This document shows positions 24,573 through 45,887 of a DNA stretch of 48,908 nucleotides, one piece after another. Source of the DNA: a virus; the IMG/VR virus record IMGVR_UViG_3300033144_001121, positions 1 through 48,908 of that record; one strand, written 5' to 3'. Each line of letters starts with the position of its first letter. Position 1 is the first letter of the stretch. The position numbers were made by a program, and so were the translations under genes. The notes under the pieces are model-generated. The model was not told the origin of the DNA. It saw nothing but the letters and a program-made list of their open reading frames with translations, and ran no database searches.

Positions 24573-24728
24573 TGAAGGCACTACACTTCCCAACTACTTC
24601 ACTGCCTTTAGCGGAATACTCCCTGAAATTAATGCTGGCCCAATCGACGCCGTGCGTACGATCCAGCTTTAATTTCAGGGAATATTCCGCTAAAGGCAGT
24701 GAAGTAGTTGTGAAGTGTAGTGCCTTCA
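24573..24728. repeat. Near-perfect inverted repeat with 66-base arms
   Basis: Arm 1 is 24573-24638 and arm 2 is 24663-24728, with a 24-base loop. The arms pair with three mismatches (24590, 24619, 24633 against their partners). Arm 2 codes for the last conserved residues of the ATP-grasp protein (LHNYFTAFSGIFPEI); arm 1 is an inverted copy of this coding sequence, and the ATP-grasp stop codon lies inside it. The transcript would fold into a long hairpin. Origin by template switching or by assembly/amplification foldback cannot be told apart here. Confidence 0.9.
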
Positions 24729-25426
24729 ATACCCGGAGCCGTGTTAACCTCGTATACGCAAGCAGTACCAGCGTGCTTATTGTAACCAACATCAACGCCA
24801 CCAAAATCAAGGCCAAGGGCAGTGACAGCAGCAAGAGCAGCCACACGCACGCAATCAGGAGCAGCCACTCCACCACGACAAAACACCCATCCATTATGAT
24901 AGTTCCTAATTTGGTAATCAACTTCGTCATTGTTCGTCTCCTGTCGTTTTCGTTTCATTTGAATGTCGATAATCTCTCCGCGCACACAATGGACGCGGTA
25001 CTCGTCTGCCTTCTTCATGTACTTCGTATATAGTGGCGCATGTACGAGGGGTACGTCGCGCTTACGGCCTGCAAGAACAATTCCACGACCACCGGAGGCC
25101 CGCAGTAGCTTACGGACAACCACGACCTTTCCAGCGTCCCACCATACCTGCGCTGCCTCTTGCGAATCAGTCCACGTAAGTGTAGGTACGTTGGCAGCAT
25201 CCAGAGCCTTAAACGTGGCAATTTTATCGCAAGCATCCTGTACTTTTGCTGGAGGGTTAATGTAGGTCCCATTAAATTTCTCCTCTGTACTGCCCCAGTT
25301 AATGATGTGGGTGAAGTCTCCGTGCTTCCGTATCTGTTTGGGGGTAGCCAGCAGAATACCACACTGTTTAGCGAACCGTCGAGCACCGCCCGAGGCTCTC
25401 TTCCACGGTTGTATTCGAATCGTCAT
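24629..25426 (-). CDS. ATP-grasp ligase
   Basis: 265 residues. The ATP-grasp pattern includes VVVVRKLLRASGGRGIVLAG (read as two parts, about 101-120), and the metal/ATP site YEVNTAPG (Glu226, Asn228) as in RimK and D-Ala ligases. Forms amide bonds between a carboxylate and an amine, with acyl-phosphate intermediate. It belongs to a cassette with a class II glutaminase, two amidoligases and a cyclotransferase. ATGA overlap upstream. The last 12 residues and the stop come from the loop and arm of an inverted repeat, so the native C-terminus may be altered. Confidence 0.8.
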   Translation of the reverse strand: MTIRIQPWKRASGGARRFAKQCGILLATPKQIRKHGDFTHIINWGSTEEKFNGTYINPPAKVQDACDKIATFKALDAANVPTLTWTDSQEAAQVWWDAGKVVVVRKLLRASGGRGIVLAGRKRDVPLVHAPLYTKYMKKADEYRVHCVRGEIIDIQMKRKRQETNNDEVDYQIRNYHNGWVFCRGGVAAPDCVRVAALAAVTALGLDFGGVDVGYNKHAGTACVYEVNTAPGIEGTTLHNYFTAFSGIFPEIKAGSYARRRLGQH

Positions 25427-25623
25427 GATGCGGTAGCGTCGTCGAGTCGTCGTAACGCTCCCTCCAGAAGAACTTCGCTCTCATCGACCTTGATCTGTGC
25501 TGCATCGTAGGTCTTCTTGTACTTGTCCCGCCATGCTGCACGATCCTTAAGCTCTTTCTGTGCCCGTGTAACTGCCGTAGCAGCCTCTATAATGTTCGTT
25601 GTCCTTCCATTTAAGTTTCTCAT
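25423..25623 (-). CDS. Small coiled-coil protein
   Basis: 66 residues, RBS GGAGG, ATGA overlap with ATP-grasp. Charged helix throughout (AVTRAQKELKDRAAWRDKYK, then KVDESEVLLEGALRRLDD). Its place between glutaminase and ATP-grasp hints at a structural or adaptor role. Unknown. Confidence 0.55.
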   Translation of the reverse strand: MRNLNGRTTNIIEAATAVTRAQKELKDRAAWRDKYKKTYDAAQIKVDESEVLLEGALRRLDDATAS

Positions 25624-25645
25624 CAGAATTTCCTCCAGTAATCCT

Positions 25646-27160
25646 CTAGTTCAGCTTCTCTTTCGGGTAGGGTTTGTTTCCCTCCCATCCGTCCAAGGTA
25701 CTCACGCAACCCCCGCATAGCAAGTCTTTGCCTTCGTTCACAATAAGTGCGTATGCAGTGTCGTCCATATTCATAGACGCGGTGCAGGAAATACAGCCCC
25801 TCTCTAGCATAGTATCCAACACGGTAACCTCTATTTCCTTGTCCCCGACGTTGACGGTCACGCGTCCTTTTCCCTCATCTTGGGCCTCTTCGTCAGGTTT
25901 GTGCTGCTCCCAATCACAGTTAATCAGGTCGCACAACACACTCGGGACCGTCGTCGCGCCCTTCTCTCTGGGCATGGCGTGTGGCCTCGACAGTCCGACC
26001 GGATTCACCATCCATGACTGTCCCATGTACGCGTTTGCCATTGCAGGTCTTACGTCATAGAGGACAGCATCCCACTCAGAGTCGCCCCAATCCCGATGAA
26101 CTATGTCACCAAAGACAGTGTACCTGCCATTTTGCTGCTCATATTTCACTACGGGCTGGAATTCTAAGAGGTCGGTTGGCCTTAAGTCGTATTCGCGTCT
26201 TAGCTCGACTAAATGCTTTATCAGCAATTTTCTGTGTTTGAGGTTCACTGTTATCCTCATATCCGTTGCCTTCAGTCCATCGCCAGTGCCCCGTCTCACG
26301 GTTGAGTCGCCATGCTCCTCCGCCCTCGGTAGCCACTTGTTCACGGCTCTTTGTAAGGCACTCTGGTCTGATCCAGCCCCTTTTGCGCGTCGCTCCTGTT
26401 GACGTTTCGTCATAATGCTTACTATTGGGAGAGACTTTCGGACAAAAGGGTCAAAGCTAGTGACCTCAGGCACTAGGCTTCCCTTCTTGTACTTCAGTAT
26501 CTTCCACTTATCCATCTCGAAGATCGACCGACCCTCACATGGGCGCTTCCAGAGGCTCTTGTTGACGGTCTTAAGGTGCATCCCGTCGCTCATGAACCAC
26601 ATAATGTCCTTCGCAGGACTTATGGTGAAGTGTAGTGGTCGATCACTGTTCCGAGCCATGTTAATCGACTCGTCTCGGCGGTCCACCCAGACAACAGCGA
26701 AGCTACCATCAATGCTTTCCAAGACCTCTTTGGCCTTCTCCGGTGGTTGTTTCGATAGGCCCAAGGCAATCTGCATGGAATCGACCTCAAGAGCGCTGTC
26801 GAATGTGACCATGCTGCTGCCCTTGTGGGCAAGAGTTCCGTTGTGGACCAATGAGACATCACCGAATGTAAAGGGGTGTGCATTTTGAAGCTTGATGCTT
26901 CCCTTTGTAGCCGCCCGGTTATGCCCGATCTTCGCCCACGAATCGAAAAGATTCTTACGATAATGCTTGCTGTGAACGTACTTGTCCCCAGCCATCAGGC
27001 TACGCTGGTTCTTCACCCGGAAGCGCTGATCGACGTTGATGATGCCCGTCGAATCAAAGCCCCGCAGTGTATCCAGTGTCAGCCCAAAGTGCATAAAGTG
27101 GTTTTTCTCAAGGGTGTACTGATCGTCCTTGAGCGATATGTACCCTACAATTCCACACAT
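25646..27160 (-). CDS. Class II glutamine amidotransferase (Ntn hydrolase)
   Basis: 504 residues starting MCGIVGYISL, so Cys2 is the nucleophile after Met removal. GHNRAATKGS (79-88; Arg82) and LVHNGTL (Asn107-Gly108) are the glutamine-binding elements. No synthetase domain (sugar isomerase or AsnB type) follows, so ammonia would go to a partner, probably the ATP-grasp or amidoligase proteins. The C-terminus has a zinc-ribbon-like pair (GCISC and CGGC). RBS GGGAG. Homologous cassettes are described in phiEco32-type phages. Confidence 0.82.
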   Translation of the reverse strand: MCGIVGYISLKDDQYTLEKNHFMHFGLTLDTLRGFDSTGIINVDQRFRVKNQRSLMAGDKYVHSKHYRKNLFDSWAKIGHNRAATKGSIKLQNAHPFTFGDVSLVHNGTLAHKGSSMVTFDSALEVDSMQIALGLSKQPPEKAKEVLESIDGSFAVVWVDRRDESINMARNSDRPLHFTISPAKDIMWFMSDGMHLKTVNKSLWKRPCEGRSIFEMDKWKILKYKKGSLVPEVTSFDPFVRKSLPIVSIMTKRQQERRAKGAGSDQSALQRAVNKWLPRAEEHGDSTVRRGTGDGLKATDMRITVNLKHRKLLIKHLVELRREYDLRPTDLLEFQPVVKYEQQNGRYTVFGDIVHRDWGDSEWDAVLYDVRPAMANAYMGQSWMVNPVGLSRPHAMPREKGATTVPSVLCDLINCDWEQHKPDEEAQDEGKGRVTVNVGDKEIEVTVLDTMLERGCISCTASMNMDDTAYALIVNEGKDLLCGGCVSTLDGWEGNKPYPKEKLN

Positions 27161-27163
27161 ATA

Positions 27164-28144
27164 TCATAACTCCCATTCAAAGTCTGTCCAAGGCGCGGCT
27201 ATGTGTCCTGCCGCCATAGTTGCAACGTCTTCTGCTTCCTCTTGGTCAAGATCATCGACGTTAACCTGATCCAGTTGTAGTGTGTCCTGTAGCCTAAGTA
27301 GGCCACTCTCCTCATACTCATCTAAAATGTCCAGTGGGTCTTTGTACTCTCCGGCTAGGTCCCGCAATCCCATGAGGAACTGCACCCACGCATCGACCTT
27401 CTTCATGTCCGTTGTCGCCGGGTGCTGCCTAAACTCTATTGTACCGAGCGAAGTCAGTGGCCGGAAGTTCAGGGCCGAGTACTTGATGCAGTGGAACAGC
27501 CCAAGGTCCGGTAGTTCTTGTACTGGGTCGTGTACCCGCGCAATTGGGGCCTGCGCCTCCACCGCACGCTGCAAATCATCGTCGAGGACATGAAACATAC
27601 CCGGCTGGGCGCGTGCCGCCCGACGCATCTTCGGTGCCTTCTGTAGCTTCATCTTCGCGTACCCCACCCGTAGGTGTCGCATGTCGTTGTACAACGTCTG
27701 GGCAAACATCGCATTGGACCACAGGGGGACACAGAAGTGGCTCCCCTCCCGCCCGTCTGCGAACTGCTTAAAGATGGACGGTTCCGCGAGAATGTACAGC
27801 ACGATTGTATTCCACAGGTGGGTGAGTGTCACATCCGACATATTCAGATGTACATGCACGCCGCACCTAATATTCGCCTTCGCGGTTGATGCTCTGATAA
27901 TTGCCGTAGCTTCCTTATAGGCACTATCAAGGTGACCGGGCATAAGCACGTGGCTTATCAACTCCATGCCTCCGCCGCGGAGACTGGGGTCACGCTCCAA
28001 GTACCAGCGATTCACCTTGAGGTCCGAGTCCAAGAACCGAGCGCTGGAGAACCCTTCGTACTCCAGTTCGATGCCTACTCGTTGACCCGTGCGCTGCTCG
28101 ACATGTGGTAACAGCTTGATTAGTGGCGTGTTGAGATCAATCAT
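27164..28144 (-). CDS. Amidoligase family (COOH-NH2 ligase)
   Basis: 326 residues of the glutamine-synthetase-like amidoligase fold: RVGIELEYEG (22-31), GGGMELIS (57-64), CGVHVHLN (94-101) and GTIEFRQHPAT (234-244). Joins carboxylates to amines using ATP; predicted to build peptide-like metabolites or modify proteins. ATGA-coupled upstream. It is distinct from the second amidoligase nearby, with little obvious similarity outside the motifs. Confidence 0.78.
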   Translation of the reverse strand: MIDLNTPLIKLLPHVEQRTGQRVGIELEYEGFSSARFLDSDLKVNRWYLERDPSLRGGGMELISHVLMPGHLDSAYKEATAIIRASTAKANIRCGVHVHLNMSDVTLTHLWNTIVLYILAEPSIFKQFADGREGSHFCVPLWSNAMFAQTLYNDMRHLRVGYAKMKLQKAPKMRRAARAQPGMFHVLDDDLQRAVEAQAPIARVHDPVQELPDLGLFHCIKYSALNFRPLTSLGTIEFRQHPATTDMKKVDAWVQFLMGLRDLAGEYKDPLDILDEYEESGLLRLQDTLQLDQVNVDDLDQEEAEDVATMAAGHIAAPWTDFEWEL

Positions 28145-28710
28145 AAGACACCCTCCTTCGCCAGCTTAATGTATGCTCGTTTGCTGAGCGGATCATTTGG
28201 GATGAATGGTTCAAATCCCAAGTCAGTTAATGTACCTGTAGGGTTACCCCGGAAGATAACCTCAACAGCCTCGTGTTCGTTCTGCCTCAAGATAATATCA
28301 CGAGTTACTGCCACGGAATGGGCAATATTCTTAGCCAATGCCCTTTGTGCTTCCTTTATCGACATATAATCAGGACCGTCGATCATGAGCCGCATGATGT
28401 CGCCACCCATGCCGCGCCCGTAGGTTAGTTGGTAGTGGTCGCCCATGCTGGCCGACTTCCGCATGTTGCGGGCAGCCTTGCGTGCGATGTACACCGCGCC
28501 GTAGGGGGTGTTGTAGGAACCACTTCGAGGCCACCAACATTCCAGATCGTCCGGTTTCACTTTGCGGGGTTCGTCGTCAGGCCCACCCCGAGTGTGTCTC
28601 AACTGTCCATCGTTGACGAGTATAAGACCCGGCCCGTACTTCACGTGGTCCATCCACGTGTTGGCGTAGTACATCCGCCAGTCCTGTTTATTTGCTTGTG
28701 AAGGCTTCAT
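28141..28710 (-). CDS. Conserved unknown between two amidoligases
   Basis: 189 residues, ATGA overlaps with both amidoligases. It has GGPDDEPRKVKPDDLECWW, then YGAVYIARKAARNMRKSAS and a C-terminal PFIPNDPLSKRAYIKLA. No motif known to me. The tight coupling suggests work in the same pathway, for example as substrate or carrier. Confidence 0.6.
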   Translation of the reverse strand: MKPSQANKQDWRMYYANTWMDHVKYGPGLILVNDGQLRHTRGGPDDEPRKVKPDDLECWWPRSGSYNTPYGAVYIARKAARNMRKSASMGDHYQLTYGRGMGGDIMRLMIDGPDYMSIKEAQRALAKNIAHSVAVTRDIILRQNEHEAVEVIFRGNPTGTLTDLGFEPFIPNDPLSKRAYIKLAKEGVL

Positions 28711-29543
28711 ACTGCTGGTACTCCATGTGCCATTGCTTCGAGTTGTATGTCACGGTACAGCACGCCTCGATCTACCTTTGTAGATGGAGTCATGTAATCC
28801 CGTACACGCGGCCAATTGATCGCCTTGAACACGGTGCGAATCAGAGCCGCCTCAGTTTCAGTGAGCCACTTGACTAGTTGCAGTGCGTTGGCCCCCACCC
28901 GGTAGATTTTGTCAACATCATTTGTCCACAAGTTGTCTGGTGTTCGGTACTCAACCCCGTATGGTTTGGGGCGGAAGATACCCGGACGACCATACCACTC
29001 TGTCCGTGAGTTCACCCGCCGGGGGTGTGTCTGACTCATGACCCCAATCATAAGGTCTGCAAAGAGAGCAGCCGCGAAGTCGGGACAGTTGAAGTTCCCG
29101 CCTAAGTGTATGTGGCCGCCACAACTACGCTTCCTGCCGAGTTCACCCTGAAAAGCACGTTCCTCGCCGCCCTCATAGGCGTTGAAGTCCGGCTCACACC
29201 CAATGACCTTGGCTTGATCCGACATAAGATCACGGGCTAAGAATGTATTCTCGACTTGTATCCGAAACGAATGCTTTGCTGGAATGTACTTCGCCAACAT
29301 TTCATGGGCAGAGGTAAACCGATCACACCAAGTCCTGATCGACTTTGCCGGGGGAATGTTGTACTCCAGCATTACATTGTCTTCTTGCAGCATAAAGCCC
29401 GCCATGAAGTCCGGCGCTTGAAACGGCTTGACCTTCGTGCCGTCGATAATACCGACACACGGGACAATCCGATCCTGCTCGTTGCTAAACAAGAAGACTT
29501 CAACATCTGATCCAATTTGAGGATCGCATGGTACCTTCTTCAT
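28707..29543 (-). CDS. Phage COOH-NH2 ligase type 2 (amidoligase)
   Basis: 278 residues. GSDVEVFLFS (11-20), CGGHIHLGGN (141-150) and GVEYRTPDNLW (196-206) are the metal/ATP and substrate motifs of the phage-specific glutamine-synthetase-like ligase first noted in phiEco32-type phages. RBS GGAGG, ATGA overlap. Likely forms an amide between an acid and amine with ammonia or amino donor supplied by neighbours. Confidence 0.82.
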   Translation of the reverse strand: MKKVPCDPQIGSDVEVFLFSNEQDRIVPCVGIIDGTKVKPFQAPDFMAGFMLQEDNVMLEYNIPPAKSIRTWCDRFTSAHEMLAKYIPAKHSFRIQVENTFLARDLMSDQAKVIGCEPDFNAYEGGEERAFQGELGRKRSCGGHIHLGGNFNCPDFAAALFADLMIGVMSQTHPRRVNSRTEWYGRPGIFRPKPYGVEYRTPDNLWTNDVDKIYRVGANALQLVKWLTETEAALIRTVFKAINWPRVRDYMTPSTKVDRGVLYRDIQLEAMAHGVPAV

Positions 29544-29878
29544 TTGGTGTCCTCCATCTTCTTAAGTAGGAAAGTAGGCGCAATCCACGGCGACCCAAAT
29601 ATGTGCGGTTGCGGGGTCGGTATGTGTGCCTTCCGTTTTGGTACTACTACGTTCTTGTTGTGCTTGGTAAGGTTTGCAGGTTGATGAGTGGTCATAAGCA
29701 CGATTTCCCCATTCTCATCAATTTCAGATAGTGTGCAGCGGAGGATAGTAGCGCCCCACCCCTCGGCCATGTCCTCCAGTGTGTCCATTGCGTCACTCGG
29801 TATGGCGGCGGGGATAACCCCCTGCCTCTCCCGAATGCGGCCTGACTTCTTAGAGATTGTGGCTTTGTAATAGTACAT
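29540..29878 (-). CDS. Hypothetical protein in amidoligase cassette
   Basis: ATG 29878 (TGATG overlap with the cyclotransferase stop, AGAGG upstream) gives 112 residues; longer open frame upstream is not needed. First half strand-rich (YYYKATISKKSGRIRERQ, ATILRCTLSEIDENGEIVL), second half basic and Pro-rich. Function unknown; coupled to the type 2 ligase. Confidence 0.55.
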   Translation of the reverse strand: MYYYKATISKKSGRIRERQGVIPAAIPSDAMDTLEDMAEGWGATILRCTLSEIDENGEIVLMTTHQPANLTKHNKNVVVPKRKAHIPTPQPHIFGSPWIAPTFLLKKMEDTK

Positions 29879-30348
29879 CACATCGCCTCTCTTTGTACCC
29901 AGAAGTTCTCCTCCTCCTCGCCGGGCTGCCACACGCCAGTCTTGATAATGCTGTCCTGCGCGGGGTCGTCCAGCTTTGTGAGAGGCATGAGATACATCCA
30001 CACACGCTTCTTCATAATCTCCGTCCAGAGCTTACGCCGCTGGAAGAAGTGTGGGTGGCCCTCGTAGAAGTCCAAGTGCGCCAAGGCATCCTCATTCATC
30101 ATGTATACCTCCCCGCAGATGGGTTGCTCGGCTGCCGCGGCTCGCCTTTCCTTCGGGGTCAGATCGAACACCGCCGGAAACGGGCCAAGGTCCTTGAGCT
30201 TGTAGTGCCCGAGGGTAAAGTCGTACCCAAGGAAGGTAGCGCGAATCTTCTTCATCAGTTCGTGGTTCGTGTGTGTACTCTTCAATGTACCGTACACAAG
30301 GACACGTACCTTGCCCGTGTCGTCAATTGTTCTCGTCCTGTCTGCCAT
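29878..30348 (-). CDS. Gamma-glutamylcyclotransferase-like (GGCT/AIG2)
   Basis: 156 residues. RVLVYGTLKS (15-24) is the substrate loop of the GGCT/AIG2 fold; the catalytic Glu is Glu96 in DFYEGHP; GEVYMMNEDALAHLD fits the family core. Releases 5-oxoproline from gamma-glutamyl amines, so it could edit or cut gamma-glutamyl products made by the neighbouring ligases. RBS GGAGG before ATG 30348. Confidence 0.78.
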   Translation of the reverse strand: MADRTRTIDDTGKVRVLVYGTLKSTHTNHELMKKIRATFLGYDFTLGHYKLKDLGPFPAVFDLTPKERRAAAAEQPICGEVYMMNEDALAHLDFYEGHPHFFQRRKLWTEIMKKRVWMYLMPLTKLDDPAQDSIIKTGVWQPGEEEENFWVQREAM

Positions 30349-36651: not shown

Positions 36652-37503
36652 ATGAAGGTATCAGTCCATCTGAAACCCCACATGACCACTGTTAACGAGA
36701 GGTCGAACTGCTTAGGCAGACTTCTGAAGGACAGGGGACATGATGTAACATGGACTACACGGGATGTGGTTGTTCCTGACACGGAACTCACCCTCCAGAC
36801 CTGCTTCGCACCCTCCGTGGCCCTCAAATGGGCCATTGAGAACAAAGTTCCCTTCCTGATCATGGAGGCCCCGCACTTCCGGTCCTTCTATGACAAGAAC
36901 GTATCTGCGTCTTGGGGGTACAACGGATTGGCTGGGGGGTCATGGAGGACTCCTCCGCCCACAGAGCAACGACCTAAGCCAGAACTCCTGAAGATGAAGG
37001 GAGGGGGCAAGACCCTCATCATTGGGCAGAAGCCCACCGACATCTCTCTACGGGGGTCAGACCACACACAATGGCTCTTGGACCGCTTCGAGGAGTTCCC
37101 GGACGCCGACTTCCGGCCCCATCCCCTTATGGTGTGGCCCAGAGAGTGTCTGCCTCCTATTGAAGAAGCGCTGAAGGACTACGGGCGCGTCATCACATAC
37201 AACTCCACGGTAGGGCTGGATGCCACTATTGCGGGGTGTGAGGTCCGCATAGACGGCCCGTGCTCACTAGCTAGCAGGAAAGAGGGCGTATCACGCGAGG
37301 AATGGCTCCACGATCTCTCATGGTCACAAGCGAACTACACTGACTTTGAACTACTTGTGGATAACATTCTCGACGGACACGAAGAAGCCAGAGAACGAAT
37401 GGAAGCTGGATTACATGAACTAGCGCAGGTGAGACCAAATGGCCAAGCTATTCAACGGGAATACTATCGGGAAATCCCCCACGCTGACTGGGGAGTACTC
37501 TAA
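36652..37503 (+). CDS. Glycosyltransferase-like protein (KpsC/S-like)
   Basis: 283 residues. GRLLKDRGHDVTW near the N-terminus and VITYNSTVGLDATIAGCEV (about 181-199) match the GT-B-like capsule polysaccharide (KpsC/KpsS) family, where the second forms the nucleotide-sugar region. Target unknown: virion protein, DNA or host surface. Weak RBS. It leads the modification-type cassette. Confidence 0.45.
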   Translation: MKVSVHLKPHMTTVNERSNCLGRLLKDRGHDVTWTTRDVVVPDTELTLQTCFAPSVALKWAIENKVPFLIMEAPHFRSFYDKNVSASWGYNGLAGGSWRTPPPTEQRPKPELLKMKGGGKTLIIGQKPTDISLRGSDHTQWLLDRFEEFPDADFRPHPLMVWPRECLPPIEEALKDYGRVITYNSTVGLDATIAGCEVRIDGPCSLASRKEGVSREEWLHDLSWSQANYTDFELLVDNILDGHEEARERMEAGLHELAQVRPNGQAIQREYYREIPHADWGVL

Positions 37504-38044
37504 GGCTATCCAGCAGCACCACATTGACAGAGGTTATATGTGGGGCGCTTCAGCGATCAAGTACGCTGGTGCTGATGTCCTAAGGCTACTGGACGATAAG
37601 TATAAGACTTCTATAGTCACAGCCCTCGATTACGGTTGCGGGCAAGAGGCTATGAAGAAAGAGTTTCCCCAAACGAAGTGGACTGGATATGATCCGGGCA
37701 TTCCGGGGAAGACTGAGAAGCCTGAAGGTCAGTTTGACCTCGTTGTTTGCGTAGATGTCATGGAACACATAGAGCCTCAGTTCATCGAAACTGTACTCGA
37801 AGAGATAGCTGACTACGCCAAGATAGCCGCGTACCTCGACATAGCATGTACGACTTCCCACGATGAGTTCCGTAGTGGTCCTTGGGCGGGTCAAGAAGTA
37901 CATATCTCTCAGTACCCCGCCGACTGGTGGGAAGAGAAGGTCAGGGCTCTCCAGAACATGCACGTGCAGGAAACGACCTACTTGGGGCGACAGCTTCGCG
38001 GGGAGTGGCGCACTCGGTGTAAGTTCCTCCTTGAGAAGCTTTGA
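37439..38044 (+). CDS. Class I SAM methyltransferase
   Basis: 201 residues. TALDYGCGQE (61-70) is motif I for SAM; WTGYDPG holds motif II; FDLVVCVDVMEHI (99-111) is motif IV/post-I. RBS AGGTGAG; overlaps the previous gene by 65 bases. No DNA methylase catalytic motif (NPPY) is visible, so a small molecule, glycan or protein target is likelier. Confidence 0.7.
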   Translation: MAKLFNGNTIGKSPTLTGEYSKAIQQHHIDRGYMWGASAIKYAGADVLRLLDDKYKTSIVTALDYGCGQEAMKKEFPQTKWTGYDPGIPGKTEKPEGQFDLVVCVDVMEHIEPQFIETVLEEIADYAKIAAYLDIACTTSHDEFRSGPWAGQEVHISQYPADWWEEKVRALQNMHVQETTYLGRQLRGEWRTRCKFLLEKL

Positions 38045-38562
38045 ACATCAGACACACCAACGTCTTGGTAGCCGACATCGTGGGGTTCATACGACGTAAC
38101 CCCCAAGCTATCGAGGGCTACGAAGCCGGACCCTTTGGGTGGCGAGTTCGGCTGGACATGACTAAACACAACAAGCCGGTGTTCAGGAAGGCTCTCCAAG
38201 AGAGTATCCAGAAGAACGGCATACGCAACCCCTTACTGGGGTGGTGCTTCAAAGAGGGGCTGTTCATAGCCTTCGGTGCCGGGCGGCTCAAGGCCGCTAA
38301 GGAAGCCGGACTAACAGAAGTACCGATGATCGTCAACGATTTCACAGGGGAGTACAAAGAGGCAGAACTGGTGACACCAGAGAACTTCGCCGACTTCTTT
38401 ACAGACGTGCCCCTGACCTACGAGTTCAACCAACAGGGCTTTACGTACCACTACAACCTGACACCATCGACAAGGGTTGTACATGACCCCGGTGCTACAG
38501 CATGGTACGAGGGCGATGTAAGTGACTTTTACGACGAATTTCCATATTTGAGGGGAGCATGA
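38041..38562 (+). CDS. ParB-like domain protein, copy 1 (TTG start)
   Basis: 173 residues. The ParB/Srx-like N-domain core is KNGIRNPLLGWCF (58-70), FGAGRLKAAKEAG (78-90) and VPMIVNDF. TTG 38041 overlaps the methyltransferase stop (TTGA); alignment to the paralog at 39037 supports this start. Similar residues and order through FFTDVPLTYEF and the end (DEFPYL). A nuclease or ATP/CTP-dependent function is possible but not shown. Confidence 0.6.
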   Translation: MNIRHTNVLVADIVGFIRRNPQAIEGYEAGPFGWRVRLDMTKHNKPVFRKALQESIQKNGIRNPLLGWCFKEGLFIAFGAGRLKAAKEAGLTEVPMIVNDFTGEYKEAELVTPENFADFFTDVPLTYEFNQQGFTYHYNLTPSTRVVHDPGATAWYEGDVSDFYDEFPYLRGA

Positions 38563-39050
38563 GCCCCTTTGAGTGTTGGTGGGTAATCCCTGAATGGAAC
38601 ATGACGCTGGGGTTACCTCCCCGGTGTGGTTCTTCGACGGTGCTGCACTACCTACAGGCGGAGGGCATACTAGCCTATCGGCCTACTGAGTTCACTGGAC
38701 GCTGTACGTTTGTTGTGCGCGACCCTGTGGACCGCTTCGTGTCCCTCTGGCGGGCGAAGTGTCGGGATAGAAACCTTCTAACCGTAGACGACACAGACTC
38801 CCCTATCATCGACATGACGCCCACAGAACTGATAGAGTTCATTGAAACGACGGATATACAAAACCCCCACTGGGCGACGCTCACTGAGATAGAAGCCGGG
38901 GGCAGTACAGAGAGGCTACCCATCGAAAAACTACACACCTTCGTTGGAGACGCTCCACACTATAATGGAAGTACCGGCGATGTACTACTAGGGGAGAACC
39001 TTCTGATGAGGGTCCAAGCACACTACGCAGACGACTATGAGCTTATTTAA
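38559..39050 (+). CDS. Sulfotransferase family protein
   Basis: 163 residues. GLPPRCGSSTVLHYL (18-32) is the 5'-phosphosulfate loop and FVVRDPVDRFVSLWR (51-65) the 3'-phosphate-binding motif of PAPS-dependent sulfotransferases (Sulfotransferase_2-like). RBS GGGGAG; ATGA overlap. Lies between two ParB-like paralogs. Moves sulfate to a hydroxyl or amine; substrate unknown. Confidence 0.72.
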   Translation: MSPFECWWVIPEWNMTLGLPPRCGSSTVLHYLQAEGILAYRPTEFTGRCTFVVRDPVDRFVSLWRAKCRDRNLLTVDDTDSPIIDMTPTELIEFIETTDIQNPHWATLTEIEAGGSTERLPIEKLHTFVGDAPHYNGSTGDVLLGENLLMRVQAHYADDYELI

Positions 39051-39573
39051 TGTACGATTCTCTTATATTGACCCTGCAAGCATTAGGGGCCGTCTCATTC
39101 GTAATTCTGGTTACGGCGGGCCTTCAGTGGGTGTGCATGGGTGGACGTGGAGGCCAGAGGTCTGCAAGTCCAAAGCCGCTAAGCCCGGATTCCACGAAGC
39201 ACTTAGGGAGTCCATCGCTAAAGACGGGCTCAGAAACCCTGTGCTTGTTTGGGCGTTCAGTGAAGGAATCTTCCTTACCTTTGGAGGTTCAAGAGTGGCT
39301 GCTGCAATCGCTCTCGCCATACCCGCCATACCAGCTATTATCAACGATTACACCGGAAGCTTCAGCGAATCCGAATTGGTTACGGAAGACAATTGGACAA
39401 CCTTCTTCACGGATATACCCCGCTCTTTCACTTTCGATGCTGACGGAGCCGACTATCATTATCACCTCGAACGAGCACGACGACACGAACATGACGAGGC
39501 TGGACTGGCTTGGCTCGAAGACCACCCTACTTGGCTAAATGAGGAATTCCCATGGCTCACCCAAAACTCTTAG
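39037..39573 (+). CDS. ParB-like domain protein, copy 2
   Basis: 178 residues, paralogous to the gene at 38041 (RNPVLVWAFSEGIFL, FGGSRVAAAIALA, IINDYTG, FFTDIPRSF, EFPWL). ATG 39037 overlaps the sulfotransferase end by 14 bases. It has a longer aromatic N-terminus (VGVHGWTWRP) and His-rich end (ARRHEHDE). The pair flanking a sulfotransferase is a striking arrangement. Confidence 0.6.
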   Translation: MSLFNVRFSYIDPASIRGRLIRNSGYGGPSVGVHGWTWRPEVCKSKAAKPGFHEALRESIAKDGLRNPVLVWAFSEGIFLTFGGSRVAAAIALAIPAIPAIINDYTGSFSESELVTEDNWTTFFTDIPRSFTFDADGADYHYHLERARRHEHDEAGLAWLEDHPTWLNEEFPWLTQNS

Positions 39574-39884
39574 CAGACGCTAACAACTACCCCATTCAGG
39601 CGGTAGAGTTAGCAGACGACGCTGTAGCTATTGCCGTAGGCACTTCTAGCTCAGCCGATACTATTCCAACAGGGGCGGTGCTTATTCGGATCGGAATTGA
39701 TGTGGATTGTTACATTCGGTTCGGAGCATCAGTAACAACGTCTAACGGGCATTTCTTCCCGAAGGGCGTTGAGGTGTTAATAGTCCCGGAAGGGGCTACA
39801 CAACTGGCAAATATCAGCGCCGATGGGTCTAGTACTGGAAACGGTACAATGTGCTCTATCACCGGCACACAATATATAGACTAA
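39552..39884 (+). CDS. Virion-type hypothetical protein
   Basis: 110 residues, RBS GAGGAAT. Beta-rich sequence (AVAIAVGTSSSADTIPTGA, VLIRIGIDVDCYIRFG, EVLIVPEGATQL) like small phage decoration or adaptor proteins. Overlaps the previous gene. Unknown. Confidence 0.55.
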   Translation: MAHPKLLADANNYPIQAVELADDAVAIAVGTSSSADTIPTGAVLIRIGIDVDCYIRFGASVTTSNGHFFPKGVEVLIVPEGATQLANISADGSSTGNGTMCSITGTQYID

Positions 39885-39897
39885 TGAGGTACTACTA

Positions 39898-40353
39898 ATG
39901 GCACAAGGCACTGTAACACTCTTCGATCAGTTCATTGAGGATGTCGGGAATGGCGTCCACGACTTGGACTCAGACACAATTCTGATGGGTCTTATTGACT
40001 CTGTTCAGACTCCCGCGGCTAATGCATCTGACGCACGTTGGGGCGCTGGCGGCAGCACAAACTACGACACCAATGAGGTGTCTCAGACTGGTGGCAACTA
40101 TGCCGCAGAAGGTCTCGACATCACAGGTACGTGGTCACAGACTACGGGCACCGGCACGTTCGACGCTACTGATGTATCCACATGGACACAAGACGGCGGC
40201 AACCCGGATGACGCTCGCTGGGGTATCATATACAACTCAACGTCCGCAGGCAACGAGTGTATCGCATTCCTCGACCTTGGGGCTGAGTTCGATATGACGA
40301 CCGGCGACCTGAACGTGACGTGGAACGGCAGCGGCATCTTCACGGTTAGCTAA
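39898..40353 (+). CDS. Conserved virion-type protein
   Basis: 151 residues, RBS GAGG. Begins GTVTLFDQFIEDVGNGVHDL and contains DARWGAGGSTNYDTNEVSQ and ECIAFLDLGAEFDMTTGD, a pattern recurring in phage proteins near tail/decoration genes. Beta-rich. Probably on the virion surface. Confidence 0.55.
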   Translation: MAQGTVTLFDQFIEDVGNGVHDLDSDTILMGLIDSVQTPAANASDARWGAGGSTNYDTNEVSQTGGNYAAEGLDITGTWSQTTGTGTFDATDVSTWTQDGGNPDDARWGIIYNSTSAGNECIAFLDLGAEFDMTTGDLNVTWNGSGIFTVS

Positions 40354-40364
40354 GGGGAATAGAT

Positions 40365-40601
40365 ATGGGAATTTTCACACGTAAAATCAAGATCACAGCG
40401 CACGATGCGGACATCAATCCTGCACCGAAGTCCACCCTCGTAAGGAAGGTGGCTCGCTACAATCGCGTCGTAGAGGCGCAGAAGCGAGCAATCAAGCGGG
40501 GTAATGTACATCGAGCGGCTGTACTTGAAGCTGAAATGGAAGCACTGGCAGAGAACCTGCTCGCGGAGCGCGAAGCTCTCGAATCCTTATACCGCAAGTA
40601 G
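40365..40601 (+). CDS. Small basic coiled-coil protein
   Basis: 78 residues, RBS AAGGGGAAT. Lys/Arg-rich helices (RKVARYNRVVEAQKRAIKRG, then EAEMEALAENLLAEREALE). Unknown. Confidence 0.55.
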   Translation: MGIFTRKIKITAHDADINPAPKSTLVRKVARYNRVVEAQKRAIKRGNVHRAAVLEAEMEALAENLLAEREALESLYRK

Positions 40602-40613
40602 TCCGGCGGCGCT

Positions 40614-41210
40614 ATGATTGAATTCTTCATAGTGCCTATCGAGGCTGCAGGCGGTCCCGGATTAGGTGCATTTAGCGTAAAATACCAGCATGACCCGGCG
40701 GTATCATCGTACGGGTCTATGCGGTATTCTTGGGGTAGCTGTGCTGTCCTTATGCTGAATGCAACCCAGACCTACCTTGACTCCGTGGCTGCGCAGCCTG
40801 ACGTATATAAAGTCTGTGCGGCCCCTGACCTGCTAGAGAACATCGGGGGTCAGGCTACCGTTGCGCTTCGTAACTGGCTTGAAGGCTGGGGCATACCGGG
40901 TAACTGGATTTCAGCAGCAGACAGCTACCGACAGGTCCTACGGGGCATCCTTGGGATGTTCCTGTTCGCCCACCGGCACGAATACCTTAATAAGAAGGGA
41001 TTCTTTCAGGACTTAGAGGAGCAGGGCTTCGATCTTAACACGAGATGGGAAGACCTGAGTCAGTCGTTCCGCGATACTATTCTAGCCCAGATCACGGAGA
41101 AGGAGTGGCCTATTGCACCTGCGGCCAACGATCAGGTCCGAAAGCTGCTCAAAGACTTCTCTGATAAGTATGATGGTACTCGTATCGTCATATGTAATGT
41201 TGAAATCTAA
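40614..41210 (+). CDS. Hypothetical protein
   Basis: 198 residues; weak RBS. N-terminal strands (MIEFFIVPIEAAGGPG), then DLLENIGGQATVALRNWLEG and helices. Stop overlaps the next ATG (TAATG). No family recognised; may assist the repeat protein after it. Confidence 0.5.
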   Translation: MIEFFIVPIEAAGGPGLGAFSVKYQHDPAVSSYGSMRYSWGSCAVLMLNATQTYLDSVAAQPDVYKVCAAPDLLENIGGQATVALRNWLEGWGIPGNWISAADSYRQVLRGILGMFLFAHRHEYLNKKGFFQDLEEQGFDLNTRWEDLSQSFRDTILAQITEKEWPIAPAANDQVRKLLKDFSDKYDGTRIVICNVEI

Positions 41211-42607
41211 TGGCATACGGCGACAACAGACAAACTGATGTCTCAGATACCTTCGATACGGAGATTGATGGTAACTGGGATAGAGGTCCCGGTGATTGGG
41301 AGGACTACGTTTGGGCTACCGGCGGTTTCGTCAACGCGGCTAGCAACGACCAAAGTGGTGCCAACTCCTACACAGGCAGAACCCACGCTGACGATCAGTG
41401 GTGTAAGGTAACCGTAAATGCTCAGGATGGTGGTTCCTACCTGAGTGCCAACGCTAGGCACGTAGGTGGAGCAGCCGAGGCCATGTACAGCGCAACTGCG
41501 GCTGAAGCAGAAGACGAGTACCAGATATACGAGTTTGAAGAAGGAATCGGCGGAGGCATCATAGCAGGTGCTACGGCTAGCCCAGGAGGGGAACTCCCCT
41601 TTGGTGCTGGTGATTACGTTGTAATAGAATGTGAAGGCACACGGATTTCTCTCGGCAGCAACGCCGGGGGCGCAGACGCAGAGAAGATTGAAACCTCAGA
41701 TGGCACCCTGACAGAAGGGGACATCGGTCTCGGCGGGTATGAGGGCGGAGATGAGACAGCAACAGATATTACTGCCTTTGAAGGCGGTGACATCGCCGCA
41801 GGCGGTAATCTCGAAGTTACGGCTACACTCGCTACCCTCGACATAGCGAAAGAGGACTCCGCGGTTAATGCGACACTAGAGGTAGCAGCCACACTAGCGA
41901 CGCTCACTATTGCGAAACAGGATGCGGTTATTACGTATCCACGCAATATCACAGCGACACTGGCTACTCTTGACATGGCGGCGGTGAACGCTACCATGAA
42001 CATGTCACGAGAGGTCGTAGCGACCCTAGCGACGCTTGACATAGCGAAAGAGGATGCAACGGTTGATACTTCTTCTGATCTGAACGTATCAGCTACGCTG
42101 GCTACTCTGGATATAGCGGCGGTGAACGCAAGCGCCAATGCAACACGCAACATCACCGCTACCCTCGCCACGCTTACCCTGTCAGATGAGGATGCGGTTA
42201 TCACGCTCCCCCGCAACATCACCGCTACCCTCGCTACCCTTGACATAGCGGCGGCTAACGCCACTATGAACATGGGACGGAATGTAGATGCAACGCTGGC
42301 TACACTGACGTATGCAGACTTAGATGCAGTCGTTAGCTCCTCGATTCATCGTAACATTACCGCCACACTAGCGACGCTTACTATGCTCGGGTACTCGACG
42401 AGCATGAATGCGACCCGCAACATCACCGCTACCCTCGCCACGCTTGATATAGCAAAAGAAGATGCGACGGTGGTGCGCGCACGGAACATCGTAGCGACCA
42501 AGGCGGCACTGAGTATTGTAGCGCACAACACGCTAATCAACGGTGTTGGTGCTGTCCTGATCCAAGCACGGCGTTCTCTGCTGACTATGATCGGAAGGCG
42601 ACGGTAA
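41210..42607 (+). CDS. Lectin-like plus tandem-repeat virion protein (head fibre-like)
   Basis: 465 residues. The first 190 residues resemble a concanavalin/LamG-like beta-sandwich (DTFDTEIDGNWDRGPGDWE, QWCKVTVNAQDGGSYLSAN). The rest is eleven 22-24-residue repeats with consensus NITATLATLDIAxxDATVxxxR. Such regular beta repeats often form extended fibres. Followed by TAATG overlap with terminase, so probably packed in the head operon as a capsid fibre or appendage. Confidence 0.55.
   Translation: MAYGDNRQTDVSDTFDTEIDGNWDRGPGDWEDYVWATGGFVNAASNDQSGANSYTGRTHADDQWCKVTVNAQDGGSYLSANARHVGGAAEAMYSATAAEAEDEYQIYEFEEGIGGGIIAGATASPGGELPFGAGDYVVIECEGTRISLGSNAGGADAEKIETSDGTLTEGDIGLGGYEGGDETATDITAFEGGDIAAGGNLEVTATLATLDIAKEDSAVNATLEVAATLATLTIAKQDAVITYPRNITATLATLDMAAVNATMNMSREVVATLATLDIAKEDATVDTSSDLNVSATLATLDIAAVNASANATRNITATLATLTLSDEDAVITLPRNITATLATLDIAAANATMNMGRNVDATLATLTYADLDAVVSSSIHRNITATLATLTMLGYSTSMNATRNITATLATLDIAKEDATVVRARNIVATKAALSIVAHNTLINGVGAVLIQARRSLLTMIGRRR
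41806..42560 (+). repeat. Eleven tandem coding repeats (about 66-72 bases)
   Basis: Each repeat codes for xxxATLATLxxx units of 22-24 residues. DNA units such as AACATCACCGCTACCCTCGC recur almost exactly (e.g. near 42148, 42220 and 42418), showing recent duplication or conversion. Confidence 0.8.
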
Positions 42608-43950
42608 TGGACATTTATCTCCATCAGGGGCAGTCGGAGATAGACGAGGACGAGCACCGCTTTCAAGTAGTCGCCGCGGGGCGACGCTTCGGCAAGAGCT
42701 TCTACGCTGCATACAGGCTATACGATGCAGCCAGCCACACGACCAAGGTACGGTCGGATGGTACAGAGATCGACCTCACGGAAGAGATCGTCTACTATGT
42801 AGGACCTACGTTCAAGCAAGCACGGGAGAACCTATGGGAAGTCATGATGAACATGGGCCAAGGGCTCATCGAGGGGATAAGACAGAACGAGGGGGAGATA
42901 AAGCTGACCAATGGCCGCCTCATACGCTTCAAGGGAGCAGACGACCCAGACTCTTTGCGGGGTGTGGGTCTGCATTTCGTAGTGATGGACGAGTATGCGT
43001 TCATGAAACCGAGTGTGTGGGAGTACATAATCAGGCCCGCCCTTGCGAGAGCGGAGGGGGGTGCCCTCTTTATTGGTACACCGGACGGTAAGAACCACTT
43101 CTACGACATGTGGATGTGCGCCGAGGCGGGGATAGACCCCAAGAGCGGCAAGCCGACGAAGAACTGGTCCGCATTCCAGTTCGCATCGAGCATGAACATC
43201 CATATCACCTCGACAGAGATAGACGAGTTGGTTGAGGGGCTGAGCGACGATGCCCGTAAGCAGGAGCTAGAAGCTAGCTTTGCAGCCACCGGAGGTAAGG
43301 TATTCCACCAGAATATGTTCCCGGTGCGGGCCCTGCACCCCAACATCAGAGGAGAGTATGTCATCGCAGCCGACCTCGCGGGCTTCTCGCCCGGAGAGGG
43401 CAGGAACAAGGCGAAGACGATACTGGACGACCACGCCATCTGTGTTGCTCTTGTCCACGACAAGGGGTGGCACATCGAGCGAATCTACCACGGCCAGTGG
43501 GACGTGCGTGAAACAGCGCTAAGGATTATCAGAGCGTGGCGGCACCACAACCAGTGCCCGGTAGGGATCGAGAAGGGCATGGCTCGCAACGCAGTGTGCG
43601 GGGAGGACGGTCAGAGCGGGTACCTCGGCGACTTAATGCAGAAGTACGGGTTCTTCACCGTCAAGCCACTGACACACGGGAACCAGAAGAAACATGACCG
43701 GATCAAGTGGGCACTACAAGGCCGGGCCGAGAAGGGTGAGATTACCCTAGAGCCTGATACTAAGCTGCCTATGGAGGAGAAGTGGATCGGTAAGTTCCTC
43801 AGTCAAGCTGTAGACTTCCCGAACCCTCTCGCGCACGACGACCTAATAGATGCCGTATCGTATATCGACCAGATGGCTGAAGACGCATTCGGCTGGAACA
43901 TCCAGTTAATTGATGACTGGGTGCCACAAGACCTTGAGGTAGGATTCTAA
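42607..43950 (+). CDS. terL: Large terminase subunit
   Basis: 447 residues. Walker A AGRRFGKS (24-31), Walker B FVVMDEY (Asp128, Glu129), coupling motif LFIGTPDG (154-161). Nuclease: AADLAGF (Asp256) and HDDLIDAVSY (about 417-426). Drives DNA packaging into the portal. TAATG overlaps on both sides. Confidence 0.9.
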   Translation: MDIYLHQGQSEIDEDEHRFQVVAAGRRFGKSFYAAYRLYDAASHTTKVRSDGTEIDLTEEIVYYVGPTFKQARENLWEVMMNMGQGLIEGIRQNEGEIKLTNGRLIRFKGADDPDSLRGVGLHFVVMDEYAFMKPSVWEYIIRPALARAEGGALFIGTPDGKNHFYDMWMCAEAGIDPKSGKPTKNWSAFQFASSMNIHITSTEIDELVEGLSDDARKQELEASFAATGGKVFHQNMFPVRALHPNIRGEYVIAADLAGFSPGEGRNKAKTILDDHAICVALVHDKGWHIERIYHGQWDVRETALRIIRAWRHHNQCPVGIEKGMARNAVCGEDGQSGYLGDLMQKYGFFTVKPLTHGNQKKHDRIKWALQGRAEKGEITLEPDTKLPMEEKWIGKFLSQAVDFPNPLAHDDLIDAVSYIDQMAEDAFGWNIQLIDDWVPQDLEVGF

Positions 43951-45887
43951 TGCCAATTGTAGAACTAGACGAAGCACGGAACGCCAACATCCCGACGATG
44001 GGCTTTCAAGGTCTGGTACACCACGTGATGTACCTTGTTCGAGAGAACCGACGGGTGCGTGACCGTCTGTATAAAGCGAACTGGGACGCATACGAGAGAA
44101 ACTTCCGAGGGAAGTACTCTGGCGCAGACAAGACGCGCGCAGCCGAACGGAGTCGATTAGTCACTCCAGCACTCGCGGCTGCCATAGAATCTACAGCGGC
44201 AACCATTGAAGATGCTATCTTCTCGCGGGAACGCTGGTTCGATGTCCTCGACGACAAGGCCGACAAGGATAAGAAGGACATCCAGCAGGCCCATGCCTTC
44301 TTGGAGGAAGACTTCAATGAGGCGGGCGTCCCGGATGCTATTGCCAAGATTGTCCTAAATGGCTGTCTGTACGGCACGGGCATCGGTAAGGTCAACATCA
44401 CACGGCGGGAAATCCGTAAGGTGGTCAACGGGAAGATAGAAAAAGACTATCGGCCCTTAGTCACACTGGAGGCCATTCCGCCGTGGGAGTTTGTCATCGA
44501 CTCACAGGCTCGGGACATAGAGAGTGCCTACTTCGTAGCGCACGAGACTCACGTACCGAAGAATGTGATCTGGTCCCGCATCAAGGCAGGGACTTATCGG
44601 AATGTGCCCCTGAGAGGTAACACAGCCTCTACGACAGCGAGCCCAGCGGGTGAAGAAACCCCAGATGGCTCCCGTAAGGCTGAAGAGCATGACGGGTCAG
44701 TATTCGTCACTGAGTACTACGGGCTCGTCCCAGCAGCAATGCTCAAGGGCGTGACGAAGTACGCGAAAGAGGATGTACAAGGCAATGGCCACATAGAGGT
44801 CATCGTCACTGTCGCCAATGAATTAGAGATACTGCGAGCGGTAGTCAACCCCTTCAGCACGAAGGATCGACCTATCCTCGCATACCAACACAGTGTGGTC
44901 CCCGGCAAGTTCTGGGGACGTGGTGTCGCCGAGAAGGGTTGGAATGCCCAACGAGCGTTGGACGCAGAGCTTCGGGCGCGAATGGACGCGCTTGGCTTAC
45001 TGACCTCCCCAATGATGGGCGCTGACATCACAAGGCTGCCACGGAACCCGGATATGCGCGTTAGGCCGGGGAAGGTCTGGCTGACCCGAGGGAGACCTTC
45101 AGAGGTACTCGAACCCGTAATCCTCGGTAACATTGACCCCAGCACGTTCAATCAGTCTTCTGAGATGGAGCGCATGGTGCAGGTGGGTACGGGCTCAATC
45201 GAGAGCAATGCCCCCCTGAACAGCGACCGACGCAACGAGACTGCCTCCGGTATCAGCATGATCCAGTCGTCCGCCCTCAAGCGGATGCGCCGGACTATGT
45301 GGAACATGGAGCGTCAGTTCCTCAACCCCTTCATCAAGAAGTCCATGTACCGGTATATGCAGTTCAACACCAGCAGATACCCACAGGACTTCCAATTCTG
45401 CATCAAGGGTACTATGGGCATCGTAGCCCGCGAGTTCGAGCAGGCACAGCTTATTGGCCTCTTGAGCAACGTCGGTCCCGACAGCCCACAGCACAAGCTG
45501 ATCCTACGAGCTATCATCGAATTAAGCTCCTCGCCCAAGCGTGATGAGATTCTGATGGCACTCGACGAGATGAGCAAGCCTGACCCTGAAGCAGAGAAGA
45601 TGAAGAAGGAGTCAGAGCAACTCCAGATGGAAGCTCAGCGTGCGGCTGTTATGGAGCAGAAGCTTGAGAACGAGAAGACGAAGAAAGAGATAGAGAAGAT
45701 CGACGCTGAGATAGCGCAGATCAAGAAGATGACGGACCTTGAAGATGAGAAGGTTGACATCCAAGCAGCGAACACTGTCATTGGCCACAACAAGGTCAAG
45801 GTACAAGAGGAAGCGCTAGAGGTACAGCGAGAGAAGAACAAACTCGACGCGAAAGCGAAGGCGAGGGCCAGTGTCAGCCAAAAGTAA
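43950..45887 (+). CDS. Portal protein
   Basis: 645 residues. N-terminal clip/stem pattern (YERNFRGKYSGADKTRAAER, then ATIEDAIFSRERWFDV), middle YYGLVPAAMLKG and FWGRGVAEKGWNAQRALDAE, typical of podovirus portals. C-terminal 100 residues form a long charged coiled coil (MKKESEQLQMEAQRAAVMEQ). Dodecameric DNA gate. Directly after terminase. Confidence 0.82.
   Translation: MPIVELDEARNANIPTMGFQGLVHHVMYLVRENRRVRDRLYKANWDAYERNFRGKYSGADKTRAAERSRLVTPALAAAIESTAATIEDAIFSRERWFDVLDDKADKDKKDIQQAHAFLEEDFNEAGVPDAIAKIVLNGCLYGTGIGKVNITRREIRKVVNGKIEKDYRPLVTLEAIPPWEFVIDSQARDIESAYFVAHETHVPKNVIWSRIKAGTYRNVPLRGNTASTTASPAGEETPDGSRKAEEHDGSVFVTEYYGLVPAAMLKGVTKYAKEDVQGNGHIEVIVTVANELEILRAVVNPFSTKDRPILAYQHSVVPGKFWGRGVAEKGWNAQRALDAELRARMDALGLLTSPMMGADITRLPRNPDMRVRPGKVWLTRGRPSEVLEPVILGNIDPSTFNQSSEMERMVQVGTGSIESNAPLNSDRRNETASGISMIQSSALKRMRRTMWNMERQFLNPFIKKSMYRYMQFNTSRYPQDFQFCIKGTMGIVAREFEQAQLIGLLSNVGPDSPQHKLILRAIIELSSSPKRDEILMALDEMSKPDPEAEKMKKESEQLQMEAQRAAVMEQKLENEKTKKEIEKIDAEIAQIKKMTDLEDEKVDIQAANTVIGHNKVKVQEEALEVQREKNKLDAKAKARASVSQK

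What the first reader, a model, noticed from the sequence alone, without database searches (positions are those of the whole stretch)
36652..39573. Glycosyltransferase-like, methyltransferase, sulfotransferase and paired ParB-like genes
Five overlapping genes in the head operon encode sugar, methyl and sulfate transfer proteins plus two ParB-like paralogs. Together they could decorate a virion protein, DNA or host glycan. I know of no described system with this set. ParB/Srx-fold proteins with sulfur enzymes hint at sulfur handling.
Basis: partly seen in the sequence, partly recalled or inferred. Interest (0 to 1): 0.75.

Follow-up and report, generated by a model that had tools for sequence, protein, structure and literature searches.

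The report
Phage sugar-decorating gene cassette beside terminase
An uncultured phage, and all 16 relatives found, carry next to their DNA-packaging genes a small set of genes that look able to attach, methylate and sometimes sulfate an acidic sugar, probably on the virus particle, together with a nucleotide-binding ParB-like protein; the sugar part has precedents, but this combination appears undescribed.

Summary
The five genes are real and were read correctly. GT (36652-37503), MT and one ParB-like gene form a conserved, overlapping trio between a DUF5681 gene and terminase/portal: order DUF5681-GT-MT-ParB-(cargo)-TerL-portal in the window and, where contigs reach, in all 16 relatives. The sulfotransferase is optional (3 of 17 loci); the second ParB is a fast-diverging duplicate seen only here. 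GT has the fold (Foldseek probability 1.00) and catalytic motifs of retaining beta-Kdo transferases KpsC/WbbB/KrkA, so it probably uses a CMP-activated ulosonic acid. The sulfotransferase has PAPS-site motifs and matches Sulfotransfer_2. MT lacks DNA-amino-methyltransferase motifs, and its homologues in named phages lie in glycan clusters or beside coat genes. Both ParBs keep the GxxR nucleotide motif but lack ParB's catalytic Glu and sulfiredoxin's Cys. Best reading: a late glycan-decoration cassette, more likely acting on the virion than on the host surface, and unlikely on DNA. 'Sulfur handling' by the ParB pair is not supported. Target, donor sugar and ParB role remain inferred.

The parts
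36652..37503 (+). GT: glycosyltransferase with the fold of retaining beta-Kdo transferases (283 aa)
   Evidence: AlphaFold pLDDT 87; Foldseek KpsC 6mgb E 1.9e-7, WbbB 5fa1, KrkA 9yfx, prob 1.00; orthologues
37027..37041 (+). QxxxD motif (Q126, D130): candidate catalytic nucleophile Asp130
   Evidence: present in 14 of 15 homologues; the motif is the nucleophile site in KpsC/WbbB/KrkA (PMC10148158, PMC9587256, PMC12887879)
37114..37125 (+). (K/R)xHP motif (R155-P158): candidate CMP-binding motif
   Evidence: 13 of 15 homologues; motif role from PMC12887879
37204..37209 (+). S185-T186 in YxSTVGxDA: candidate phosphate-binding Ser pair
   Evidence: S185 invariant; matches NSSVGLEA of WbbB 5fa0 (weak, E 0.2)
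37439..38044 (+). MT: class I SAM methyltransferase (Methyltransf_23), likely O-methyltransferase
   Evidence: Pfam E 6.5e-7; UbiG-type O-methyltransferases nearest in PDB, E 0.005; motif LDYGCG and DVMEHIE, no DPPY
37625..37642 (+). SAM-binding motif I (LDYGCG) of MT
38041..38562 (+). ParB1: divergent second ParB/Srx-fold paralogue, window-specific extra copy
   Evidence: ParB_N E 1.7e-5; long branch 2.5 vs 0.5; GxxR kept as GAGR
38275..38286 (+). GxxR nucleotide (P) motif of ParB1 (GAGR)
38559..39050 (+). ST: small PAPS-dependent sulfotransferase, carbohydrate type (Sulfotransfer_2)
   Evidence: Pfam above cut-off in window; both relatives also match; homologues in L024, L025 between MT and ParB
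38619..38639 (+). 5'-phosphosulfate-binding loop of ST (PRCGSST)
38715..38750 (+). 3'-phosphate-binding motif of ST (VRDPVDRFVSLW)
39037..39573 (+). ParB2: ParB/sulfiredoxin-fold protein, the conserved core copy
   Evidence: profile vs PDB ParB E 2e-7; AlphaFold pLDDT 90, Foldseek ParB 7bnk / Srx 6ky4 prob 1.00
39283..39294 (+). GxxR nucleotide (P) motif of ParB2 (GGSR)
   Evidence: function of motif from PMC12704722
36084..36482 (+). DUF5681 gene: conserved upstream neighbour of the cassette (context)
   Evidence: Pfam E 9e-12; conserved in relatives
42607..45887 (+). TerL and portal: conserved downstream neighbours (context)
   Evidence: PHROG hits; order conserved

Best explanation
It is a late-expressed glycan-decoration cassette of an uncultured phage clade with a T7-like portal and a PolA/DnaB replication set. 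GT, a minimal member of the retaining beta-Kdo-transferase fold, takes a CMP-activated ulosonic acid from the host pool (most likely CMP-Kdo, present in nearly all Gram-negative hosts), forms a covalent sugar-Asp130 intermediate and transfers the sugar to an acceptor. MT adds a methyl group from SAM; in some lineages ST adds a sulfate from host PAPS. The most likely acceptor is a surface protein (or protein-bound glycan) of the new virion, since the cassette sits among packaging and structural genes and next to a variable slot with adhesin-like virion genes. ParB2 is a nucleotide-binding partner, probably of MT; ParB1 is a diverging duplicate. Shown by computation: gene order, folds, motifs. 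Inferred: donor sugar, acceptor, timing, ParB role.
For: GT fold and motifs (viral fold relatives include 'Capsule polysaccharide biosynthesis protein' of Tetraselmis virus 1 and CcrColossus K4JVV7). Trio conserved, with 44-65 nt GT/MT and 14 nt MT/ParB overlaps in many loci; ParB and TerL trees largely agree. GT homologue in MW202713 lies just upstream of TerL with a MT, a DegT aminotransferase and a gene annotated glycosyltransferase tibC; in CcrPW beside a tail gene with a MT and GT9. MT homologues: S20, in a GT/'sialyltransferase' cluster between major capsid and head-closure genes; CcrColossus, after a tail gene; DSL-LC06, GTs and a 'KpsC' around a packaging gene; CRP-9, directly after the coat gene; MW202512; DLP_6. 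Cargo between ParB and TerL includes baseplate-wedge/virion-like and pectate-lyase-like proteins. No CMP-sugar synthetase or APS kinase in the record, so donors would come from the host. Phage ParB folds are often fused to Methyltransf_23, the Pfam of this MT (PMC12704722).
Against: No sequence-level match of GT to characterised Kdo transferases is significant (E 0.2); TM-scores are moderate (0.4-0.5). CcrPW homologue lacks QxxxD and xHP; L025 has RHNP instead of RxHP. No direct evidence on timing or acceptor. No ParB was noted in the named phages' glycan clusters, so its link to glycans rests on adjacency only. MT substrate cannot be told from sequence.
Confidence: 0.5

Rival explanations
1. 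Same enzymes, different target: they modify host LPS, capsule or O-antigen during infection (superinfection exclusion or preventing progeny from sticking to debris).
For: Kdo is an LPS/capsule sugar and WbbB caps O-antigen with beta-Kdo (PMC9587256); the sulfotransferase is of a carbohydrate type; phage O-antigen modification is common (own knowledge).
Against: No membrane protein, flippase or polymerase partner seen in the cassette; genes lie among packaging/structural genes rather than early or lysogeny genes; no integrase was seen among the families found.
Confidence: 0.25
2. DNA hypermodification: GT, MT and ST build a modified base and the ParB pair binds or guides on DNA.
For: ParB proteins bind DNA and are fused to predicted DNA methyltransferases in phages (PMC12704722); phage GTs can hypermodify DNA (cited in PMC12619734).
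Against: MT has no [DNS]PP[YFW] in any of 12 homologues; no thymidylate-synthase-family (hydroxymethylase) gene; GT fold is Kdo-transferase-like, no T4 AGT/BGT among listed hits; named-phage homologues sit in glycan clusters.
Confidence: 0.08
3. The ParB gene is functionally separate: a packaging or regulatory protein that stays beside TerL, with GT-MT(-ST) merely inserted upstream.
For: ParB is always the member nearest TerL, with +1 or -1 nt spacing in L003, L007, L010 and L012; a ParB/sulfiredoxin gene also lies just upstream of the terminase genes in Psychrobacter phage vB_PmaS_Y8A (PMC10434257); no ParB noted in the named phages' glycan clusters.
Against: ParB overlaps MT (or ST) by 2-32 nt in nearly all loci but is separated from TerL by 0.3-3.8 kb of cargo in many; phage ParB folds are often fused to Methyltransf_23 (PMC12704722).
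Confidence: 0.35
4. ParB/Srx proteins plus sulfotransferase form a sulfur-handling system.
For: Fold matches sulfiredoxin; the FGG motif resembles Srx FGGCHR.
Against: Aligned on ParB GERR / Srx GCHR, the catalytic Cys position is Gly (ParB2) or Ala (ParB1); 14 of 17 loci have ParB without a detected sulfotransferase, three of these cut by the contig end.
Confidence: 0.02

Closest known systems
Retaining beta-Kdo glycosyltransferases KpsC (GT107), WbbB (GT99), KrkA (GT140)
   Same: Fold (Foldseek prob 1.00), QxxxD nucleophile motif, (K/R)xHP CMP motif, Ser pair
   Different: Smaller (283 aa against roughly 300-400 aa targets), no significant sequence similarity, phage-encoded, acceptor and donor unknown
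Glycan clusters inside structural operons of phages (S20, CcrColossus/CcrPW, DSL-LC06, MW202713)
   Same: Homologous MT and/or GT next to other sugar enzymes, among capsid, tail or packaging genes
   Different: No ParB or sulfotransferase noted there and more GTs; none has the GT-MT-ParB order before TerL
Glycosylated virions of mycobacteriophages (Freeman et al. 2023, cited in PMC12619734 and PMC11256854)
   Same: Phage-encoded GTs put glycans on capsid/tail proteins
   Different: Different GTs and hosts; no methyl/sulfate/ParB set described in what I read
Phage ParB-CTPase-fold proteins fused to Methyltransf_23 (PMC12704722)
   Same: Same ParB fold and same methyltransferase Pfam, as fusion there and as overlapping neighbours here
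   Different: Separate genes here, extra GT and optional ST, about 75-aa C-terminal extension, no HTH seen in the model
Sulfotransferases of marine phages (e.g. OM43-phage metagenomic genomes, PMC10580990)
   Same: Phage sulfotransferase genes of unknown function
   Different: Those are Sulfotransfer_3 (PF13469); this one is Sulfotransfer_2 in a sugar-enzyme operon

Membership tests
Retaining beta-Kdo transferase superfamily (GT99/107/140) | KpsC/WbbB-type fold | tested here: met
   ranks 1-19 all KpsC, WbbB or KrkA, E 1.9e-7 to 4e-5, prob 1.00; TMq about 0.4-0.5
Retaining beta-Kdo transferase superfamily (GT99/107/140) | QxxxD nucleophile motif | tested here: met
   14 of 15 homologues, Q126/D130; residue-level superposition not available
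Retaining beta-Kdo transferase superfamily (GT99/107/140) | (K/R)xHP CMP-binding motif | tested here: met
   13 of 15 homologues
Retaining beta-Kdo transferase superfamily (GT99/107/140) | Catalytic-base Glu in N-terminal part | tested here: inconclusive
   E72 nearly invariant, but not shown to be in the active site
Retaining beta-Kdo transferase superfamily (GT99/107/140) | Significant sequence match to a named GT family | tested here: not met
   so filed as 'same fold and motifs', not as a member of GT99, GT107 or GT140
Retaining beta-Kdo transferase superfamily (GT99/107/140) | Transfer of Kdo from CMP-Kdo | not testable with these tools
   needs enzyme assay
Sulfotransfer_2 (PF03567) | Profile match above curated cut-off | tested here: met
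   28.6 bits vs 22; all 3 members match, best 9e-10
Sulfotransfer_2 (PF03567) | PAPS-binding 5'-PSB loop and 3'-PB motif | tested here: met
   PRCGSST / PKCGATT (divergent PKVGSTS in L025) and VR[DE]PV.RF.[SA]LW
Class I SAM methyltransferase (Methyltransf_23) | Profile above cut-off and motif I | tested here: met
   29.7 vs 27 bits; LD[FY]G.G in 12 of 12
DNA amino-methyltransferase | [DNS]PP[YFW] motif | tested here: not met
   0 of 12
ParB-CTPase fold | Fold and GxxR (P) motif | tested here: met
Canonical ParB (CTPase DNA clamp) | GERR catalytic Glu and HTH domain | tested here: not met
   Glu position is Gly/Ala; secondary structure gives a beta-hairpin and short helices after the fold, and no HTH family matched
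Sulfiredoxin | Catalytic Cys in FGGCHR | tested here: not met
   FGGSR; register via ParB alignment puts Gly at the Cys position, or Ser if aligned on FGG; no Cys either way
Phage DNA hypermodification system | Hydroxymethyl-pyrimidine synthase (ThyA family) | tested here: not met
   (the record may lack a part of the genome)

The most novel reading that the evidence does not exclude
A three-gene core (CMP-ulosonate transferase, O-methyltransferase, ParB-fold NTP-binding protein) that couples virion surface glycosylation to an NTP-binding ParB switch in the packaging operon, with sulfation as an optional finish: sulfated, methylated Kdo-type sugars on a phage particle, and a first ParB-fold role in glycan modification.
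Probability: 0.25. Interest if true: 0.75.

Novelty: new variant of a known kind. Interest (0 to 1): 0.5.

Why it matters
If right, a phage lineage uses the essential LPS sugar donor CMP-Kdo, which Gram-negative hosts can hardly give up, to coat its particles, and finishes the coat with methyl and sulfate groups. It would give a role to orphan phage sulfotransferases, whose function is called unclear in the literature (PMC10580990), and link the orphan ParB folds often fused to Methyltransf_23 in phages to an assayable pathway. The adduct assay used for KpsC and WbbB makes the main claim directly testable.

Tried and rejected
Pairwise alignment of GT with the KpsC nucleophile peptide printed in PMC10148158: no better than shuffles, so the family link rests on fold and motifs. 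A GT single-sequence scan of viral contigs found nothing; the alignment worked. Scans of genome contigs with GT and ParB alignments found no cellular relative, so the host stays unknown. ST had no relative by its own scans; two were found only through ParB neighbours, so the first idea that ST is unique to the window was dropped. A +1-frame ORF inside ParB2 (39050-39538) looked like an overprinted gene; the other gene families tested show a weaker bias of the same kind and the frame is broken in L002, L004, L009, L019, so it is not claimed. The genome search 'relatives' is not available for virus records.

Full report
Observation. The window is a 48,908-base virus record. The five ORFs exist as described and overlap by 65, 4, 4 and 14 nt. 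Pfam supports MT (Methyltransf_23, E 6.5e-7), ST (Sulfotransfer_2, E 1.9e-6) and, just below cut-off, ParB1; GT and ParB2 needed profiles and folds. Downstream lie TerL, portal and major head protein.

Conservation. Scans of IMG/VR with ParB2 and then with alignments of ParB and GT gave 16 distinct related loci. Their order is DUF5681 - GT - MT - [ST] - ParB - [cargo] - TerL - portal wherever the contig reaches; one locus (L014) has its cargo between MT and ParB. The ParB and TerL trees largely agree, so the trio mostly travels with the packaging genes. ST is present in 3 of 17 loci (window, L024, L025): in L024 and L025 it sits between MT and ParB with a 14-nt overlap after MT; three loci without it (L005, L007, L011) are cut by the contig end. 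Only the window has two ParBs; ParB1 is a long branch (2.5 vs 0.5), loosely placed near ParB2 and L014, so I read it as a fast-diverging duplicate inserted before ST.

GT. AlphaFold on a 12-sequence alignment gave pLDDT 87. In the PDB the first 19 Foldseek matches are KpsC, WbbB or KrkA, the three characterised retaining beta-Kdo transferase families (E 1.9e-7 for 6mgb, probability 1.00, TMq about 0.4-0.5). The best sequence-profile hit in the PDB is also WbbB, at the STVGxDA motif, though not significant (E 0.2). The published motifs are conserved: QxxxD (nucleophile) in 14 of 15 homologues and (K/R)xHP (CMP) in 13 of 15 (motif roles from PMC10148158, PMC9587256, PMC12887879). Viral fold relatives include 'capsule polysaccharide biosynthesis' proteins of Tetraselmis virus 1 and CcrColossus K4JVV7. 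A KpsC homologue can also use pseudaminic acid (PMC12887879), so the donor may be Kdo or another CMP-ulosonate. The record has no detectable CMP-sugar synthetase or APS kinase: donors would be the host's.

MT and ST. MT has class I motifs, no DNA-amino-methyltransferase motif, and UbiG-type O-methyltransferases as nearest PDB matches. ST carries PAPS-site motifs and an HW motif that, from my own knowledge, is typical of carbohydrate sulfotransferases.

ParB. ParB2 models at pLDDT 90 and matches ParB and sulfiredoxin structures with probability 1.00. GxxR is kept in all 16 aligned sequences, the motif whose Arg is needed for NTP binding in this fold (PMC12704722). ParB's catalytic Glu and sulfiredoxin's Cys are absent; a conserved C-terminal part of about 75 aa (HYxLERxRR..D) is family-specific. 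Phage ParB folds are often fused to Methyltransf_23 (PMC12704722), the Pfam of this MT: a hint, not a test, that ParB2 works with MT.

Context in named phages. GT homologues: MW202713 just upstream of TerL with a MT and DegT aminotransferase; CcrPW beside a tail gene with a MT and GT9. MT homologues: S20 between major capsid and head-closure genes within a cluster of annotated sialyltransferases and GTs; CRP-9 directly after the coat gene; MW202512; CcrColossus; DSL-LC06 with GTs and an annotated KpsC around a packaging gene (weak profile similarity to GT); DLP_6 with sugar transferases. In this clade the slot between ParB and TerL holds baseplate-wedge/virion-like or pectate-lyase-like proteins. 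This favours a virion or surface glycan over DNA; absence of a ThyA-family enzyme agrees.

Judgement. Shown: genes, order, folds, motifs, optional ST, duplicated ParB. Inferred: CMP-ulosonate donor (about 0.65), glycan chemistry rather than DNA (about 0.85), virion as acceptor (about 0.5), ParB coupled to MT (about 0.4). The kind of system is known (phage glycan cassettes), the composition new as far as my searches reach: new variant of a known kind.

Noticed in passing
window 24629-30348 (- strand): R2K-like ATP-grasp (weak), GATase_6, Amidoligase_2, phiEco32-type COOH-NH2 ligase and GGACT genes in one cluster; partly conserved in L010/L015 and L019. An amidoligase-type modification cassette; amidoligases are mentioned in papers on HMO-2011-related phages (PMC6256558, PMC10580990).
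   Followed up: partly
window 39050-39538 (+), inside ParB2: A 162-aa +1-frame ORF; all 16 orthologues have fewer +1 stops than synonymous shuffles (70 vs 100.6 in sum), but the frame is broken in four relatives and has no consistent start.
   Followed up: partly
slot between ParB and TerL (window 39574-42606; L009 3903-4685; L019 9680-13245; in L014 2633-6213, between MT and ParB): Highly variable cargo: adhesin/baseplate-wedge-like, pectate-lyase-like or unknown proteins.
   Followed up: partly
window ends: Order in L009 and L023 (major head protein followed by homologues of window genes at 1-1287 and 1296-2042) suggests the record's two ends adjoin and the genome is nearly complete.
   Followed up: no
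L025 7259-8023: Portal fragment lies in reverse orientation after TerL; perhaps an assembly inversion.
   Followed up: no
L033 (phage DSL-LC06) 1732-7331: MTs, a heptosyltransferase, GTs and an annotated KpsC surround a DNA-packaging gene, possibly a parallel case in an unrelated phage.
   Followed up: partly
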